Program-made: the position numbers and the translations under genes
Notes under the pieces: generated by a model
Seen by the model: only the letters and a program-made list of their open reading frames with translations
Database searches by the model: none
Told to the model about the DNA's origin: nothing
NCBI GenBank assembly: GCA_003661385.1
Contig: QMWA01000106.1
Location: forward strand, 1 to 6,132
DNA from: Thermoproteota archaeon
GTDB taxonomy: Archaea; Korarchaeota; Korarchaeia; B14-G2
Reading direction: 5' to 3'
DNA: 6,132 bases
Shown: positions 1 through 6,132 of the stretch, piece by piece
How the letters are laid out: each line of letters begins with the position of its first letter
Position numbering within the stretch: the first letter of the stretch is position 1

Positions 1-973
1 CCTATAGCAGCTCCACTACGCTCACAGATCTCAGCTGCAAGAGGCTTAGTTGAGGCAGTCACCAAGGCTAAGCCAGCTGCAAGAAGCGCAGCTGAAGCGG
101 CAGCAGCTGCAGCAGACCTCCTAGCAGACAAGGCCATAAGGGAAGTAGCTAGTAGAGCTAGCCCTAGAGCAATGGGCTTACCCCTCCCAGCCCTATCGCT
201 CAAGTAGCCTGCTAGAGGCTTCAGGAAGGCCATCACAGCAATCATGAAGCTCAGCAAGAGTCCAGAAAGCCACTCAGCTCCCCTCATAGACTCGAATAGA
301 GGCAGGTAAGTCTCGAAAGCTTGATACCCCATGTAGCATGAGGCTTCAACAGCCCCAACCAAAGCCACACCCCAGCTCAACCCAAATCCACCAGCAGCCC
401 CAGCCCTCCCCCTAGCTTCACTCACCTGGCTCAAGAGCAAGAGCACAACAGCGCCTGTAGCTGAGCACAGCAAGAACACGGGGTGAAAGCCTCTCAAGTA
501 AATCAGGGCTCCAGCTATACGAGGAGCCAGAGCCCTACCAGCTAGCATAAGTGAAGAAAGCAGCCCCATAAAAGCCCCCTATGCTCAGGGTACAAGTCAG
601 ACACCAAAGCATATGAGACTGGGACAAATATGGCTGTAGCAGCCCCATAGTAAGCCCTGACAGCAGCAAGGCTCAAAGCACCCCTAGCAGCAAAGTAAAG
701 CAAGGGAGCAGATAGGAAAACAACACCACTAGCCAAGAGAAGCCTCCTACGCCCATACAAATCCGAAAGCCACCCACCAATAAAGTTAACGAATATACCC
801 GTCACAGTTGAAGCAGAGCAGACAACACCTATAGCAGCAAGCCCAAGCCCAAGGCTCCTAGCATAAAGAGGGAGAGTAGGAGCCTTACTCATCGTAGACC
901 CAAGTATAGCAAAAAACCCAGCAGCAAAAACAAAAACAACCCTACGCAACAAACCACCACCAGGCCCAAACAC
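1..973 (-). pseudogene. Major facilitator superfamily transporter, frameshifted and cut by the window edge
   Basis: This is an MFS secondary transporter of the inner membrane; the substrate cannot be told. The first frame (973 down to 542, GTG start) gives about 143 residues with hydrophobic helices and the MFS loop 2-3 motif GGWLSDLYGRRR at about residues 66-77. It should continue after PEHRG, but at the C5 run 575-579 the frame is lost and it ends in HLC and a stop. The same protein resumes in the next frame as GAFMGLLSSLMLAGRALAP and stays open for about 190 residues to position 1, including the second-half motif GYLSDRAGRGKP (loop 8-9). Adding one base to the C5 run would restore a single protein. 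About 330 residues are visible of a family that usually has 380-420, so the C-terminus lies outside. The GTG has no clear ribosome site; a leaderless start is possible. A sequencing error in the homopolymer is the alternative to a true pseudogene. Confidence 0.85.
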
Positions 974-1435
974 TACACATTAAAAGCATCAGCAGCCAGC
1001 AAAGCTCTTTATGCCAAATCCCTACTCTACCCCAAACCCAAGTATCACATGGCCTCACTCAACCTTCCAAGGTTCTATGGCATCACTTTTACAGCTGGCC
1101 AGAAGATCCTACCTCTTCTAAGGCCACCCTCAAGGCTAGCTTACACTCTGAGAGCACTCGATAAGCTTCATAGGACATCATCCCTCACACCACCTCCCTG
1201 ATGCCACTAGATGGAAGTTGGGAAGAATATCATCTGATCCTCCACCTCCGATAGAGTAGCTTGATGCCAGCTTCCTACTATCCAACTTAAAGTGCAAGAT
1301 AGGTCTCTAGTTTGGCTCTGGTGCGCTTAAGAAGCCTCCATTGTCTCTTGAGCCACTTATGCTTGGGGCTTGTGGAGACAATTTCCTTTTACTGCTAGAG
1401 TTCTTTAGCTGTGTTTGATGTGTCATTTTGGTTTT
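974..1435. other. Gene-poor stretch between the MFS gene and the AbiE-like operon
   Basis: Nothing here can be assigned to a known family. Forward and reverse frames are interrupted by stops every 20-50 codons. A 50-codon plus-strand frame beginning at ATG 1049 and a 30-codon minus-strand frame at 1089-1181 are open, but neither has recognisable similarity. From about 1200 to 1417 one plus frame is open except for two stops, which could mark an old gene but is not distinctive. The 974-1010 part should hold the MFS promoter; only weak TATA-like runs are seen there. Confidence 0.5.
1089..1181 (-). CDS. Possible 30-residue small protein with a strong ribosome binding site
   Basis: A minus-strand frame of 30 codons starts with two ATG codons (MMSYEAYRVLSECKLALRVA...) and ends at TAA. 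The reverse strand carries GGAGGTG at 1197-1191, nine bases before the first ATG, an excellent match to the archaeal anti-Shine-Dalgarno sequence. The peptide is helical and amphipathic. I recognise no family, and the opposite strand is also open over this stretch, so the frame may be chance or the head of a truncated gene. Confidence 0.2.
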   Translation of the reverse strand: MMSYEAYRVLSECKLALRVALEEVGSSGQL

Positions 1436-1488
1436 AAAGGTGACATATCTTTAAATAGTTTACGTGCCATATTATGTCGAAAGGTGAC
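1436..1488 (+). repeat. Nine-base direct repeat flanking the TATA box
   Basis: AAAGGTGAC occurs at 1436-1444 and again at 1480-1488, either side of the TATA box. The second copy contains the GGTGA ribosome site used by the GTG at 1493. Bacterial AbiEi antitoxins repress their own promoter through repeated operator sites, so an operator role is possible, but this is inference. Confidence 0.35.
1450..1457 (+). promoter_or_regulatory. TATA box of the AbiE-like operon
   Basis: TTTAAATA fits an archaeal TATA box. Transcription would start about 25-30 bases later, near 1478-1484, just ahead of the GTG start at 1493. A second, weaker element (TTTTAAAG) lies at 1432-1439. Confidence 0.55.
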
Positions 1489-1492
1489 TACA

Positions 1493-2200
1493 GTGTACTT
1501 GGAGAGCTTTAGGGCAGCATTAGCCAGGAGCTGGTCGGGGAGCTTATTTAGAGTTAGAGATGCTGAAAGAGTGCATCCTAGGGCTAAGGAGTATTTGCAT
1601 AGGTTAAGCAAGAGCGGCGTGGTAAGGCGTATTAGCTGGGGCTGGTATTACATACCTGAAAGCTACAGAGACCCCTGGGACTTCCTAGCTAAGGATAAGG
1701 GGTTTAAGGTTGTGATCAAGCAGACAGCAGCGAGCATATGGAACTACGATTTCATCCACCGAGACATATACCGCCTAGCAGTCGAGGACAGATCCTATAA
1801 GAGGGCTTTAGAGGACTTCGCGGAGCAGATGGGCTGGAAGTTTGAAGTCGAATACCATGATAAGGTTCCCTATGAGTATATGAGAGTCGATGGCCTGCTC
1901 ATTGAAACTCCAGAGTCCTGTATAGTAAGCTGCATATCTGAGTGGTCCTTCACAGATGCCCTAGCAGTCCTCTACTTCAGGAGAAATGAAGTGGACTTTA
2001 AGAAGCTAAGGAGGATGGCCAGATGGAAGCGCATATCCAGAACTGATATCAGAGCCTGGATAGCAATAAAATACGGCTGTAGCCTATTAAACAGGAAGTT
2101 GGGGAGACAAATCTTCAAGGTTAAACCCACCAGCTTAAAGCATGATGATATCAGAGAGCTGGTAAATGAGGCTGTCGAAAAGGTGATAGAATTCGCCTAG
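1493..2200 (+). CDS. AbiEi-like antitoxin/transcriptional regulator (type IV toxin-antitoxin system)
   Basis: About 235 residues. Residues 18-56 form a winged-helix DNA-binding domain of the AbiEi type: LFRVRDAERVHP, then a recognition helix, then the wing with the characteristic GVVRRISWGWYYIP. The remainder is the AbiEi C-terminal region. In AbiE systems this protein neutralises the partner nucleotidyltransferase without forming a stable complex, and represses the shared promoter. The next gene, starting 13 bases after the stop, is that partner type, which supports the call. I chose GTG 1493 because AGGTGA (1482-1487) lies five bases upstream and the TATA box at 1450-1457 fits. Starts at TTG 1415, ATG 1418 or GTG 1484 are in frame, but the first two would add residues encoded by the promoter. 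The frame is intact. Archaeal AbiEi homologues are often only annotated as hypothetical proteins. Confidence 0.78.
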   Translation: MYLESFRAALARSWSGSLFRVRDAERVHPRAKEYLHRLSKSGVVRRISWGWYYIPESYRDPWDFLAKDKGFKVVIKQTAASIWNYDFIHRDIYRLAVEDRSYKRALEDFAEQMGWKFEVEYHDKVPYEYMRVDGLLIETPESCIVSCISEWSFTDALAVLYFRRNEVDFKKLRRMARWKRISRTDIRAWIAIKYGCSLLNRKLGRQIFKVKPTSLKHDDIRELVNEAVEKVIEFA

Positions 2201-2213
2201 AGCTATAGAACTG

Positions 2214-2468
2214 ATGAAGCACCGCGAGGAGGAAATACTTAAGGCTCTGAAGCACTTATCTAAAAGGACGAATGAGTTCAGCAATCCCAGAATTCTCCTA
2301 ATAGGAGGCTATGCCCTAAGAGCTTTCATCTCCTTAACGAGGTTTACGAGAGACTGCGACTTTGCACTCAAGGGAGAAAAGAGATGGGCTATAGACTGGA
2401 TACGCTACCTCCTTCCAGAGGGATTTTCCATCGAGTATCTAGAGAAACGTGGTAGCTACGCTTTATGA
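2214..2468 (+). CDS. AbiEii-like nucleotidyltransferase toxin, N-terminal part (split gene)
   Basis: Eighty-four residues carrying the nucleotidyltransferase signature: IGGYAL with the glycine pair at residues 31-32, then TRFTRDCDF with the two metal-binding aspartates at residues 47 and 49. This is the first half of an AbiEii/AbiGii-type (DUF1814) enzyme, which transfers nucleotides to a cellular target, in studied relatives the tRNA acceptor end. It stops at TGA 2466-2468 after GSYAL, whereas the family needs roughly 240 residues in one chain. The missing part follows at once in another frame. The start ATG is 13 bases after the antitoxin stop and has no clear ribosome site, so translation is probably coupled. 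Alone this part lacks the third acidic residue and should be inactive. Confidence 0.75.
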   Translation: MKHREEEILKALKHLSKRTNEFSNPRILLIGGYALRAFISLTRFTRDCDFALKGEKRWAIDWIRYLLPEGFSIEYLEKRGSYAL

Positions 2469-2944
2469 AGTGTGTTAAGCTCATTAGCCACGGTAATACT
2501 AAGATTAAGGTATCTTTGGATTTCATGGAAGGCGAGATAAGAGGAAGAGAGCCAAAGGATGTGATATTGATAGACGATGCTATGATAAAGGGGTCACAAG
2601 TAACTATTCCAGTAGCTGGTGAGGAGGTTACTGTTCTCGCTCCAAGCTATGCCGATTACTTCATAATGAAGGTGGTCTCCGCCAGACCATCTGACATTCG
2701 AGATCTAGCTTCATTATTGCTGGAGCTAGGACTTCCCTCAGGCTTAATCGAGCGAATAAGACAAATCCTACCTTATCCAGAGGTCTTCAAGTCCAAACTC
2801 GAGGAAAATATAATTCCTGTAATGAAAAGGAAAACCTTCATAGACAGTTGGAAAGGTGTCTTCGGAACCACAAAGTATAGAGAGGAAGACAGAAGGAAGG
2901 TGATTAAGCTACTGGAGAAACTTCTCGAGGAACTACGTGAATAG
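2465..2944 (+). CDS. AbiEii-like nucleotidyltransferase toxin, C-terminal part (split gene)
   Basis: This frame completes the nucleotidyltransferase. It has the third catalytic acidic residue in KIKVSLDFMEG (Asp at residue 19) and the family's later motif APSYADYFIMKVVSARPSDIRD (Lys 69, Arg 74, Asp 77, Asp 80), followed by a helical C-terminus. Its ATG overlaps the stop of the N-terminal part as ATGA. One extra T at the short T run near 2462-2464 would join both parts as ...SYAFMKCVKLISHG..., about 243 residues, the expected length. So this is either a frameshifted pseudogene, a read error, or a natural two-polypeptide enzyme made by stop-start coupling. The lack of any normal N-terminus on this part makes a recent frameshift the simplest view. 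Confidence 0.75.
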   Translation: MKCVKLISHGNTKIKVSLDFMEGEIRGREPKDVILIDDAMIKGSQVTIPVAGEEVTVLAPSYADYFIMKVVSARPSDIRDLASLLLELGLPSGLIERIRQILPYPEVFKSKLEENIIPVMKRKTFIDSWKGVFGTTKYREEDRRKVIKLLEKLLEELRE

Positions 2945-2954
2945 CAGGCTGTCA

Positions 2955-2973
2955 AAACTTTATATAAAAGTTT
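2955..2973. promoter_or_regulatory. Symmetric TATA-like element without a following gene
   Basis: AAACTT, seven bases TATATAA, then AAGTTT form an inverted repeat around a strong TATA-like core. On the plus strand transcription would begin near 2990-2995, yet no start codon with a reasonable frame follows. It may be the promoter of a lost gene or of an untranslated RNA. Confidence 0.4.
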
Positions 2974-2998
2974 GTGCTCTAGAGCTTAAGACACAATC

Positions 2999-3307
2999 TC
3001 ATAAAGCCATAAGAAGTTTAAGAAAAGCCAGAAAGCCCGCTGAGAGCAGCTTTAGAGTGTGAAAGCTAAGCACCCTGAGCCAGAGGCTGTTGTAAATGCA
3101 GTCAACTAGGTTTGGCTTATGGTTAGTGTCTGAATGGCATTAAGCTGAATGCGTGATTAGTAACCCATTGGCTATTGCAGCTATGCTACCTGGGTAGTAG
3201 AGTAGCGTAGACTCTATTAGCATTATGGCTCCAGCTACGGTTAAAGCTCCTACAGTTTAGAATAGCGATGATGTAAGGGACTTTGGTATGGAGACCTTAA
3301 CTTGCTC
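2999..3307 (-). pseudogene. Possible decayed hydrophobic protein gene
   Basis: One minus-strand frame reads from 3307 to a stop at 2999-3001 with only two internal TAA codons. The first part reads VKVSIPKSLTSSLF, stop, then TVGALTVAGAIMLIES and TLLYYPGSIAAIANGLLITH, which looks like a membrane segment. The second part, after another TAA, ends SFHTLKLLSAGFLAFLKLL. No start or family is recognisable. On the plus strand a short frame near 3000-3110 is also partly open, so the choice of strand is uncertain. Confidence 0.25.
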
Positions 3308-3385
3308 ACTCTAAAGCCTCACTCTAGAACTCAGCTTTAGCGTATAGAATAAGCTTAGACATAGGTGAGGTAAGGGCAGCTTGCG

Positions 3386-3739
3386 TTAGAGTTCGGTAGC
3401 CATGGGCTGCTTCCACTGGGGCTTAAGGCTAGCATAAGCTGGTAGGCTAGTGTTCAATGGAGCTAAAATAGCCCCTATCCTAGAGCAGGCGAACAAAGCC
3501 TCCAAAACCTCAACCCTACCCCAAGACAGCACCGCTACAACATCCCCCAGCCCCACACCAAGCTCACTACACATATACCCCGCAAGACGCTTGGCCCTCT
3601 CACTAAGATCCCTGAAGGAAAACCTCCTAACAGCTCCAGCTGCGTCATCAGCTAGCGCAACCCAACCTGGAGTAAGCTCAGCCCTCCTCTCAACCCACGT
3701 ATTTACCCAAAACCCCCTATATGCAATGGCCTCCTGCAT
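3386..3739 (-). pseudogene. Acyl-CoA synthetase (AMP-binding family), truncated N-terminal fragment
   Basis: The 117-residue product begins MQEAIAYRGFWVNTWVERRA and continues through ARRFSFRDLSERAKRLAGY-like sequence (residues 40-55) to DVVAVLSWGRVEVLEALFA and IGAILAPLNTSLP (to about residue 100). This is the N-terminal start of an adenylate-forming acid-CoA ligase. Such enzymes have about 500-560 residues; the AMP-binding P-loop, the adenylation core and the CoA-binding C-domain are all missing. After residue ~101 the sequence turns into unrelated YASLKPQWKQPMATEL and stops, so the rest was deleted near 3440. ATG 3739 is preferred over GTG 3766 because GGTGG precedes it by four bases and the family starts at this point. 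A second, more decayed copy lies at 4621-4728. The fragment cannot be catalytic. Confidence 0.85.
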
Positions 3740-3815
3740 CAAGCCACCATAACCCACAGCTACCACATGATTTAAAGATGCAGCCTAAGCAGGCAGCTCA
3801 AATAGCTTAAACACC
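3622..3815 (-). repeat. Copy A of a duplicated segment (promoter and 5' end of acyl-CoA synthetase)
   Basis: This segment matches 4623-4791 in the same orientation. The best-kept blocks are 17 identical bases around the start codon (3733-3749), the TATA box context GATTTAAAGAT, AGCGCAACCCA and CTTAAACACC. It is longer than copy B because B has small deletions, including about 16 bases between TATA box and start. Confidence 0.75.
3771..3777 (-). promoter_or_regulatory. TATA box of the truncated acyl-CoA synthetase
   Basis: The minus strand reads ATCTTTAAATCA here, about 32 bases before the ATG at 3739. The same box, in the same context, is kept in the second copy at 4743-4750, showing that the duplicated segment includes promoter and 5' end. 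Confidence 0.5.
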
Positions 3816-4002
3816 TCATCCATTGCGCGCAGGATAGCAGCCAGCAGGCTACCTAGGCTAAAGCCGCCAGCAACCCTTTTAGGCTACCGCTGAAGGCACA
3901 GAGCATAGCATGCCTCCAGCTAAACCCGACTGCAAGACCTTCATCAAGCAGCCACACAGTCCAAATCTGAAGCCTACGCCCCCGAGGCCGCAGCCACACA
4001 CC
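3785..4002 (-). pseudogene. Decayed 3' end of an unidentified gene upstream of the acyl-CoA synthetase
   Basis: A minus-strand frame open from 4002 reads GVWLRPRGRRLQIWTVWLLD, then EGLAVGFSWRHAMLCAFSGS, and reaches a frame break at the AAAAGGG run (3874-3880). With one extra base it continues RVAGGFSLGSLLAAILRAMD and EVFKLFELPA to a TAG at 3785-3787, a few bases before the acyl-CoA synthetase promoter. The last part is echoed in the copy near 4791. I recognise no family. The reading depends on one assumed indel and upstream it starts straight after a stop, so at most a remnant is present. Confidence 0.3.
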
Positions 4003-4046
4003 CTAGGAGCCTACAGCCACAGCCTAAATGCTAGCTGGTGTCCACC

Positions 4047-4631
4047 ATGAGCTGTGATGTCAGCCTAGAGGTCAGGGAGGCCATCCACAGCCTACTGAAG
4101 ATGATGTACTCGCTCAGCAGCAGGCTCATATGGAAGGCTCAAGAAGCCCTAAACTCACCTAGCCAGCCTACACCACCTGCATTCGACCTGATAGACTGCC
4201 TGCCATTCGACGAAGCCCTACTAGTCTGCGCCCACCTGCTGAAAGAAGGCTTCAAGCATGGAAGAGACTTCAAAGTCTATAGGTGCGGCCCCAGCTACGG
4301 CATCACACTCGGGGAGAAGGCATCAAAGGCTACCAGCCAGCTGATCCAAGACCTCCAAGCTGCTAGAGTCATCCAGAAGCTAGCCACAGAAGTCCTAAGG
4401 GAGTGGAGGAGCTCAGCTGGAAGGAGGTGCGGCGACGTCTACGAGGCCATCGAGCTCGCCTCCATGGCTGCAGCTGAAAGAAGCAAGCTAAGCAGCAGAA
4501 GATGCCCACAATGCGGAAGAAACACAGGGGTAGAGGTAAAGGAAGCCCTACACGGAAGAACCTACGTGATCTCTGCGAGATGGATATGCTGCAACCACAG
4601 GGAAAAAGCCACCATATCACTCACCTACTAA
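4047..4631 (+). CDS. Unrecognised protein with C-terminal zinc ribbon
   Basis: About 194 residues, intact. I do not recognise the family. The N-terminal two-thirds are helical and charged (EVREAIHSLLKMMYSLSSRL; later KASKATSQLIQDLQAARVIQ), with isolated cysteines. The last 45 residues form a likely zinc-binding module: RRCPQCGRN (CxxC) followed 24 residues later by ICCNH (CC-x-H), in the pattern of a rubredoxin-like or treble-clef ribbon. Such modules bind nucleic acid or protein, so an accessory or defence role is possible but unproven. ATG 4047 is chosen because GGTG (4037-4040) lies six bases before it; GTG 4038 is the alternative and adds three residues. The gene has no partner on its strand and is bracketed by two direct copies of acyl-CoA synthetase 5' DNA on the other strand. 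Its stop lies inside the edge of copy B. Confidence 0.7.
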   Translation: MSCDVSLEVREAIHSLLKMMYSLSSRLIWKAQEALNSPSQPTPPAFDLIDCLPFDEALLVCAHLLKEGFKHGRDFKVYRCGPSYGITLGEKASKATSQLIQDLQAARVIQKLATEVLREWRSSAGRRCGDVYEAIELASMAAAERSKLSSRRCPQCGRNTGVEVKEALHGRTYVISARWICCNHREKATISLTY

Positions 4632-4728
4632 CATGGCAGCAGAACCCATAAGCCAGCGCAACCCAGCCCAAGCTCACCCTCCCCTCAATGTATTTATCCA
4701 AACCCTCATACACAATAGCACCCTGCAT
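4621..4728 (-). pseudogene. Second, decayed acyl-CoA synthetase 5' remnant
   Basis: The minus strand reads MQGAIVYEGLDKYIEGRVSL and then GWVALAYGFCCHVSR before TGA, 35 residues. It corresponds in frame to MQEAIAYRGFWVNTWVERRA...GWVALADDAAGAVRR of copy A, with gaps that are multiples of three, then stops. The distance from TATA box to ATG is only about 15 bases, compared with 31 in copy A, so transcription would begin inside or after the start codon. It is a paralogous leftover, not a working gene. It overlaps the end of the zinc-ribbon gene by 11 bases on the opposite strand. Confidence 0.6.
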
Positions 4729-4791
4729 CAAGCCACCACACGATTTAAAGATACAACCTAAGGCAAAGCAGCCCAAACACACTTAAACACC
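4623..4791 (-). repeat. Copy B of the duplicated acyl-CoA synthetase 5' segment
   Basis: Copy B aligns with 3622-3815 over its whole length with substitutions and a few deletions. The homology starts within the last nine bases of the zinc-ribbon gene and ends next to the VapBC promoter. It keeps the TATA box (4743-4750), the GGTGG ribosome site and the ATG at 4728. Confidence 0.75.
4782..4788 (+). promoter_or_regulatory. Possible TATA box of the VapBC pair
   Basis: CTTAAAC on the plus strand is about 26-30 bases before ATG 4814, the spacing expected for a leaderless transcript. The box lies inside copy B, so it would have been supplied by the antisense side of the duplicated segment. Confidence 0.35.
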
Positions 4792-4813
4792 CCAACTTGC
4801 ACCACTAGTGCAC

Positions 4814-5027
4814 ATGAATGAAGAGGGAGCATACTGATACCAGGGGAGCTAAGAGAGAAGAGCAAGTGCAGAGTGTTTAAGCCAGAGGGGCAGGTGATGG
4901 AGCCATATTCCTAGAGCCCCTAGATACAGCTGTAAGAAGGCTTGGAGGGAAGTACAGAGGGGTGCTAAAAGCCAGCATAGAGGAACTCGAGGAAGTAGAA
5001 GAGAAGTACCTTAGGAGCAAGGGTTAG
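4814..5027 (+). pseudogene. VapB-type antitoxin, AbrB-like, frameshifted
   Basis: Three frame pieces join into one antitoxin-like protein. ATG 4814 gives MNE, then with a one-base correction GSILIPGELREKSKCRVFK and PEGQVMEPY, a pattern typical of the AbrB/MazE swapped-hairpin DNA-binding fold (compare GxxxIPxxLRE). A second correction near 4908-4912 (TATTCC) leads to FLEPLDTAVRRLGGKYRGVL and KASIEELEEVEEKYLRSKG, the toxin-binding tail, ending at TAG 5025-5027. It sits three bases before the PIN toxin, the usual VapBC order. VapB proteins bind and inhibit the toxin and repress the operon. With two frame breaks it should not be made intact. The tail is well supported; the start is less so. Confidence 0.5.
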
Positions 5028-5030
5028 GAT

Positions 5031-5461
5031 ATGATCGCCTACAGGATCCTACTTGATGCAGATGTATTCATGTCCTACTTGACTGCAACAACTTATACAG
5101 GCATGCCTGAAATTATAGATGCCATCCTGAAGGACGCCTATAGCATACACGTCCTCTGAAGTCTATAGCGACATAATAGCAGCTCTCAGAAGCAGTGGAG
5201 TCCCATTGCCTAAAGTCATAGAGTTCATAGAGGATATAGCTAAGATGCCACCTGAGCCACTGCCTCTCACACCTGAGATCGCAGCTGAAGCTCTGAGGCT
5301 CTACGAGAAACAACCACGGCCCTAGAAGGCTCCACTACTTCGACTCATATCACATAGCTACAGCAAAACACTACAACCTACCACTACTAACAAGCGACAG
5401 ATACATCATAACACACTCAAGAGAGCTTGAAGTCAGAGTGATAGACCTCAGAAGGCTGTGA
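5031..5461 (+). pseudogene. vapC: VapC-type PIN-domain ribonuclease toxin, two frameshifts
   Basis: PIN toxins are metal-dependent ribonucleases that cut RNA. From ATG 5031 the first piece reads MIAYRILLDADVFMSYLTAT with the first conserved Asp (residue 9) and ends at TGA 5157-5159 after 42 residues. Removing one C at 5153-5154 leads to SEVYSDIIAALRSSGVPLPK with the conserved Glu. That piece runs to YEK and a TAG at 5323-5325. Removing one C at 5311 leads to NHGPRRLHYFDSYHIATAKH and NLPLLTSDRYIITHSRELEV with the last two acidic residues, to TGA 5459-5461. The repaired protein has about 142 residues, normal for VapC, and all four acidic positions. The gene is thus recently broken rather than ancient debris, or it contains read errors. 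Confidence 0.85.
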
Positions 5462-5494
5462 ACTGCTGCTACATCGACAGCAGCCTCACCCTAG

Positions 5495-5728
5495 CTCAGC
5501 AAGCCACCAACAACCTTCACCTGCAAGGAGCACGCCAACTTAGCCGTACACCCACGGACAGCATGCTGCCAGCTTCAGGAGACCCCTTAGACCATAGGAG
5601 ATGAAGCTGGCAGCATAATCTCATTACCTGCTGCCCTAGCAGCTGCAGGCCTTATAGCAGAAGTATCACCTCTAACATCATTTGAAGCAGCTTACCTACT
5701 TCCCCATACAAGAATGCTGAGGCTATAG
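5495..5728 (+). pseudogene. Remnant of an unidentified gene with an internal amber codon
   Basis: One frame reads LSKPPTTFTCKEHANLAVHP and RTACCQLQETP to a TAG at 5588-5590, and continues in the same frame TIGDEAGSIISLPAALAAAG, LIAEVSPLTSFEAAYLLPHT and RMLRL to TAG 5726-5728. The second part has good protein-like composition (alanine-rich helix, then a turn). No start with a ribosome site is present and another in-frame TAG precedes it at 5492-5494. I do not recognise the family. It lies between the VapC stop and the promoter of the next gene. Confidence 0.35.
5563..5616. repeat. Perfect 15-bp inverted repeat
   Basis: ATGCTGCCAGCTTCA at 5563-5577 and its exact reverse complement at 5602-5616 are separated by 24 bases. 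The arms could form a hairpin or be the ends of an inverted duplication. There is no T run after it, so it is not a typical terminator. The right arm lies within the remnant frame (DEAGSI). Confidence 0.7.
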
Positions 5729-5750
5729 CCTAAAGCCACGGGGCTTCGGC
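5728..5750 (+). other. Short GC-rich stem-loop
   Basis: AAGCC (5733-5737) and GGCTT (5742-5746) pair around the loop ACGG, with GCC/GGC outside allowing the stem to extend across a small bulge. It lies just upstream of the TATA box of the last gene and might end transcription from the left, but no T run follows. Confidence 0.3.
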
Positions 5751-5758
5751 AGGCAGGC

Positions 5759-5765
5759 TTATAAA
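5759..5765 (+). promoter_or_regulatory. TATA box of the membrane protein gene
   Basis: TTATAAA fits an archaeal TATA box; transcription would start near 5786-5791, a few bases before ATG 5795. Confidence 0.6.
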
Positions 5766-5794
5766 CACACATTGAGCAGTATGCAGGTGAGTGT

Positions 5795-6132
5795 ATGGAA
5801 GCTGGGCACACAGCCTTCCTCCTATCCTCCCTCGCCTTCGCACTCTACATAACATGCCCCAGGATGACTGCCATGATAGCCACGCAAGCCAAGCTAACCG
5901 GCATAAACCCGTTTCTAGTGATTTTAACTGGTTCTCTGCTAGGTGTCCCGATGTTCTACCTACTCTACCTCATCCTCAAGCACATCGGTGTAGGCGCGGC
6001 AGTTATAGCAGCTGCGCTACTAGACGCTGGTGCAGCACTCCTAATGGGCGGGCTAGACCTGAAAGCAGGCATAGAGCTAGCCACAATAACCGTGTTCGTT
6101 TACATAGGCATAAGAGTAGCCCCCATAGCAGC
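5795..6132 (+). CDS. Unrecognised multi-pass membrane protein, cut by the window edge
   Basis: The frame is open from ATG 5795 to the last base, 112 complete codons. GGTGA (5786-5790) lies four bases before the ATG and a TATA box precedes it, so the start is well supported. Likely membrane segments are at residues 7-21, 38-62, 64-86 and 91-112, separated by short polar turns (CPRM; HIG; DLKAG). There is no signal peptide beyond the first helix and no motif that I can assign. Glycine- and alanine-rich helices suggest a small transporter or channel-like protein, but the function is unknown. It differs from its left-hand neighbours in being clean and fully open, so the zone of decay seems to end at about 5730. 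Confidence 0.75.
   Translation, partial: MEAGHTAFLLSSLAFALYITCPRMTAMIATQAKLTGINPFLVILTGSLLGVPMFYLLYLILKHIGVGAAVIAAALLDAGAALLMGGLDLKAGIELATITVFVYIGIRVAPIA

What the first reader, a model, noticed from the sequence alone, without database searches (positions are those of the whole stretch)
3622..4791. Direct repeats of an acyl-CoA synthetase promoter and 5' end bracket a zinc-ribbon gene of unknown family
Two same-orientation copies (3622-3815 and 4623-4791) of a segment holding the end of an upstream gene, a TATA box, ribosome site, ATG and ~40 codons flank an unrelated, intact, opposite-strand gene. Copy B starts exactly at the 3' end of that gene. This resembles the scar of a tandem gene duplication into which the zinc-ribbon gene was inserted, or from which the rest of both synthetase genes was deleted. 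Direct repeats would also allow the cassette to be lost by recombination.
Basis: partly seen in the sequence, partly recalled or inferred. Interest (0 to 1): 0.6.

Follow-up and report, generated by a model that had tools for sequence, protein, structure and literature searches.

The report
Decaying duplicate synthetase-toxin locus, orphan gene
The two repeated pieces are leftover start regions of a dead acyl-CoA synthetase gene in a decaying second copy of a gene neighbourhood whose intact copy sits elsewhere in the same genome; a healthy-looking gene of unknown family lies between them, and this is ordinary genome decay rather than a new system.

Summary
The repeat is real. Copies A (3646-3826) and B (4647-4800) align with score 98 against a shuffle maximum of 32. 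Both hold the promoter side and first codons of a minus-strand AMP-binding acyl-CoA synthetase. In the window the synthetase is cut after about 101 codons, VapB lacks its start, and VapB and VapC are frameshifted. A and B are closest to each other (84% in ungapped coding columns; A-C32 74%), and only they share the upstream region, so a local partial duplication is likely. B is dead: its TATA-to-ATG distance is 18 nt (34 in A) and it ends after 35 codons. The zinc-ribbon ORF (4047-4631) has a real coding signature but no convincing relative in 394 genomes or the virus, phage and plasmid sets. "Copy B starts exactly at the gene's end" is not supported. Whether the gene was inserted or duplicated along with A cannot be decided without related genomes. 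Verdict: ordinary genome decay around an orphan gene.

The parts
3437..3739 (-). Truncated acyl-CoA synthetase pseudogene (copy A coding part), codons 1-101 of the C32-type gene; the ORF runs on to 3386 without similarity
   Evidence: Pfam AMP-binding E 3.8e-18; 77% aa identity to residues 3-101 of the intact C32 gene; substitutions 19/10/38 at codon positions 1/2/3, dN 0.15, dS 0.74
3740..3826 (-). Upstream/promoter region of copy A; TTTAAA at 3771-3776, centre 34 nt before the ATG
   Evidence: shared with copy B, not with C32
3827..4046 (.). Unique sequence before the zinc-ribbon gene, no coding signal in any frame
4047..4631 (+). Intact orphan gene, 194 aa, with a predicted C-terminal zinc ribbon (CPQC...CCNH)
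   Evidence: coding score positive only in its own frame; C-terminal part pLDDT about 70-77 with three strands, the last reaching the C-terminus; no convincing relatives
4647..4728 (-). Copy B coding remnant: first codons of the synthetase, 12 nt missing in five small gaps relative to A
   Evidence: 84% identity to A in ungapped columns; frame open for 35 codons only
4729..4800 (-). Upstream/promoter region of copy B, 16 nt shorter between TTTAAA and ATG than A
4808..5033 (+). VapB-like (AbrB-type) antitoxin pseudogene: start missing, frameshifted
   Evidence: DNA homology with C32:5723-5952
5031..5463 (+). VapC-like PIN toxin pseudogene with several frameshifts
   Evidence: about 79% nt identity to C32:5950-6387 over the joined VapBC match; substitutions 20/14/46 by codon position

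Best explanation
The window holds a decaying paralogue of the C32 locus (synthetase on the minus strand, divergent VapBC on the plus strand). After the two loci separated, both stayed under selection for some time (third-position bias: shown; timing: inferred). A stretch containing the synthetase promoter and first codons was then duplicated locally, leaving A and B (supported by A-B being the closest pair and sharing upstream sequence absent from C32). The synthetase body and the start of VapB were lost and VapBC was frameshifted (shown). The zinc-ribbon gene lies between the two copies, either because it was part of the duplicated unit, whose second copy was later deleted, or because it came in with the extra copy (inferred, undecided). 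It is probably the only gene of this stretch still working (inferred). The repeats most likely have no function of their own.
For: C32 carries collinear intact genes: 258 nt at 82% (3459-3716) and 674 nt at 79% (4808-5469), same order and strands. Only A, B and C32 respond in the genome to the A sequence. A-B identity 84%, A-C32 74%, B-C32 78% in the shared coding stretch, ungapped columns; upstream 73% A-B against 43% A-C32, whose local score is within shuffles. Third-position bias in A and in the VapBC remnants. B's promoter spacing is shortened and its reading frame ends after 35 codons. Zinc-ribbon coding signature.
Against: The order of events rests on about 90 coding bases in B. B-C32 is slightly closer than A-C32 in ungapped columns, so grouping A with B rests largely on the shared upstream region, which C32 could have lost. 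There is no same-order relative to compare with. The whole contig is 6.1 kb of a draft genome.
Confidence: 0.72

Rival explanations
1. The zinc-ribbon gene is an acquired gene that came in on a circle or fragment carrying a piece of the synthetase 5' end and integrated by a single crossover, which gives direct repeats with the insert between them; the original site joined synthetase promoter to VapBC.
For: A is continuous with the synthetase body on its left and B with VapBC on its right, as a single crossover predicts; the gene has no convincing relative in this genome or in 393 others, and its frame is intact in a decaying setting.
Against: No integrase, transposase, tRNA, or relatives in virus, phage and plasmid sets. 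The topology is identical to a plain tandem duplication. The C32 copy has 766 nt between the two genes, not a tight junction.
Confidence: 0.2
2. Two complete tandem synthetase genes stood here and the body of B was replaced by the zinc-ribbon gene.
For: Both copies have promoter, start and first codons.
Against: No trace of synthetase codons beyond about the 30th to the left of B, where the intact zinc-ribbon ORF lies; needs both a deletion and an insertion.
Confidence: 0.1
3. The contig belongs to another strain or species in the bin, or is misassembled, so the two loci are orthologues from two organisms or the repeat is an assembly scar.
For: The genome is a draft of 206 contigs, 91% complete, 1.9% contamination, and the contig is only 6.1 kb.
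Against: A and B differ by about 16-31% with many small indels, which assembly does not make; C32 and C106 differ by about 20% with third-position bias, too far for strains of one species. A contig from a different related species is not excluded.
Confidence: 0.12

Closest known systems
Partial local duplication followed by gene decay (pseudogene formation)
   Same: Direct, truncated, diverged copies of a gene's 5' end; dead reading frames; intact paralogue elsewhere
   Different: An intact unrelated gene lies between the copies
AMP-binding acyl-CoA synthetase (Pfam PF00501)
   Same: Copy A matches profile positions 2-83
   Different: About 300 profile positions missing; not an enzyme
VapBC toxin-antitoxin pair (AbrB-type antitoxin, PIN toxin)
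   Same: DNA homology of 4808-5463 with the intact pair on C32
   Different: Start of VapB missing, both genes frameshifted
Zinc-ribbon proteins (TFIIB-type, Cas12f TNB-type ribbons)
   Same: CxxC ... CCxH residues and a predicted three-stranded C-terminal end
   Different: Pfam scores all below cut-off; N-terminal part unlike anything found

Membership tests
Functional acyl-CoA synthetase | Full AMP-binding domain | tested here: not met
   Only positions 2-83 of 384 in copy A; even less in B
Pseudogene of the C32-type synthetase | Homology to an intact paralogue plus truncation | tested here: met
VapBC toxin-antitoxin (functional) | Open reading frames for antitoxin and toxin | tested here: not met
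   frameshifts in 4808-5463 compared with C32
Integrated mobile element | Integrase or transposase, tRNA attachment site, or relatives in viruses/plasmids | tested here: not met
   the window covers only 6.1 kb
Zinc-ribbon protein family of known function | Match above a curated cut-off | tested here: not met
   Pfam best E 0.038, NCBIfam none, PHROGs 0.27, PADLOC TniQ 0.0067
Zinc-ribbon protein family of known function | Metal binding by the Cys/His residues | not testable with these tools
   needs the purified protein

The most novel reading that the evidence does not exclude
The zinc-ribbon gene is the cargo of an unrecognised mobile unit that integrates at, or carries away, the 5' end of a host gene, leaving promoter-containing direct repeats.
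Probability: 0.04. Interest if true: 0.5.

Novelty: new member of a known kind. Interest (0 to 1): 0.17.

Why it matters
It shows how a duplicated metabolic gene and toxin-antitoxin neighbourhood decays, and flags one orphan gene that stays intact in the wreckage. It does not point to a new mechanism.

Tried and rejected
Low-complexity match: rejected by shuffles and the genome search. Origin of A and B from two different paralogues: rejected. Exact start of copy B at the gene end: not supported. Similarity of the 766-nt C32 intergenic stretch to the zinc-ribbon region: none beyond chance. A second copy of the zinc-ribbon region in the genome: none, apart from one 24-nt match at E 0.015. Other copies of 2940-3440 in the genome: none. 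Relatives of the zinc-ribbon protein: none convincing (one 22% match over 82 residues at E 0.005). Relatives of the synthetase in named genomes are only up to 38% identical and mostly bacterial, so they did not help with the history of the locus. A paper search gave nothing relevant. The structure prediction was made from one sequence, mean pLDDT 52, so no fold search was made.

Full report
Observation. The window is contig C106, bases 1-6132, of a 1.74-Mb draft genome in 206 contigs. Local alignment of the two stretches gives 98 points against at most 32 in 500 dinucleotide shuffles. Searching the genome with copy A returns itself, the synthetase on contig C32 (80%, E 2e-26) and copy B (69%, E 1e-13), and nothing else below E 0.01. 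The similarity runs from 3646/4647 to about 3826/4800.

What the copies are. On the minus strand, copy A reads MQEAIAYRGFWVNTWVERRAELTPGWVALADDA..., the start of an AMP-binding acyl-CoA synthetase. It is similar to the intact 519-aa gene on C32 for about 101 codons (77% aa identity), and then the similarity ends. Copy B reads MQGAIVYEGLDKYIEGRVSLGWVALAYGF... and stops after 35 codons. TTTAAA lies 34 nt before the ATG in A and 18 nt before it in B. If transcription starts about 26 nt after the box centre, as in archaeal promoters (own knowledge; the domain of the host was not tested here), A is a plausible promoter for its ATG and B is not.

The locus is a paralogue of C32. To the right of B, 4808-5469 matches C32:5723-6393 at 79%, where an intact AbrB-type antitoxin and PIN toxin pair lies (the family scores are below the curated cut-offs, so the VapBC name rests on the gene pair, the AbrB-like N-terminus and the PIN-like match). 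In C32 the synthetase and this pair are divergent, with about 766 nt between them. In the window the same order and strands are kept, but the synthetase is cut, VapB has no start, and both VapB and VapC are frameshifted. Differences between the loci sit mostly at third codon positions (19/10/38 in the synthetase, 20/14/46 in VapC; dN 0.15, dS 0.74 in the synthetase). So both loci were under selection after they separated, and the decay is later (inference).

Origin of the repeat. Over the first 94 coding bases A and B agree in 84% of ungapped positions, A and C32 in 74%, B and C32 in 78%. The upstream stretch is shared by A and B (73%) and not with C32 (43%, local score within shuffles). A and B thus most likely come from a local duplication. 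The small size of B limits this: the B-C32 value exceeds the A-C32 value, so the shared upstream stretch carries most of the weight.

The gene between. The ORF 4047-4631 has a codon signature of real genes in its own frame only (0.12, against 0.16 for VapC and about 0.3 for metabolic genes on C32, which were in the training set; other frames negative). An open frame this long is not by itself proof: 115 of 5000 shuffles have one. A single-sequence structure prediction is weak overall (pLDDT 52), but the C-terminal quarter reaches 70-77 and forms a three-stranded end that includes the last residues, which fits a native stop codon. No convincing relative was found in its own genome, 393 other genomes, GTDB contigs by peptide patterns, virus, phage and plasmid sets, or family libraries.

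Mechanism. Direct repeats with a unique insert arise by tandem duplication of the unit 'synthetase start + unique stretch' followed by loss of the second unique stretch, or by single-crossover integration of a circle. The sequence cannot tell these apart, and no genome closer than the same class is held. No mobility gene is present in the window. I take duplication and decay as most likely. Loss of the gene by recombination between A and B is possible but not favoured by identity: the longest perfect match is 17 nt.

Verdict. The intact orphan gene is the only item that might repay further work.

Noticed in passing
1478-2944: AbiEi-like regulator gene followed by an AbiEii-like nucleotidyltransferase that is split into two overlapping frames (2214-2468, 2465-2944): a type IV toxin-antitoxin pair, toxin probably broken; no second copy of 2465-2941 in the genome.
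   Followed up: partly
3-973 (minus strand): Major facilitator transporter split by a frameshift near 542-569, another sign of decay in this contig.
   Followed up: no
5563-5616: Perfect 15-nt inverted repeat with a 24-nt loop (ATGCTGCCAGCTTCA) downstream of the VapC remnant.
   Followed up: no
2940-3436: About 500 nt without coding signal or other copies in the genome, left of the truncated synthetase.
   Followed up: partly
L018:4946-5710: About 766-nt stretch between the intact synthetase and VapBC on C32 that has no similarity to the window.
   Followed up: partly
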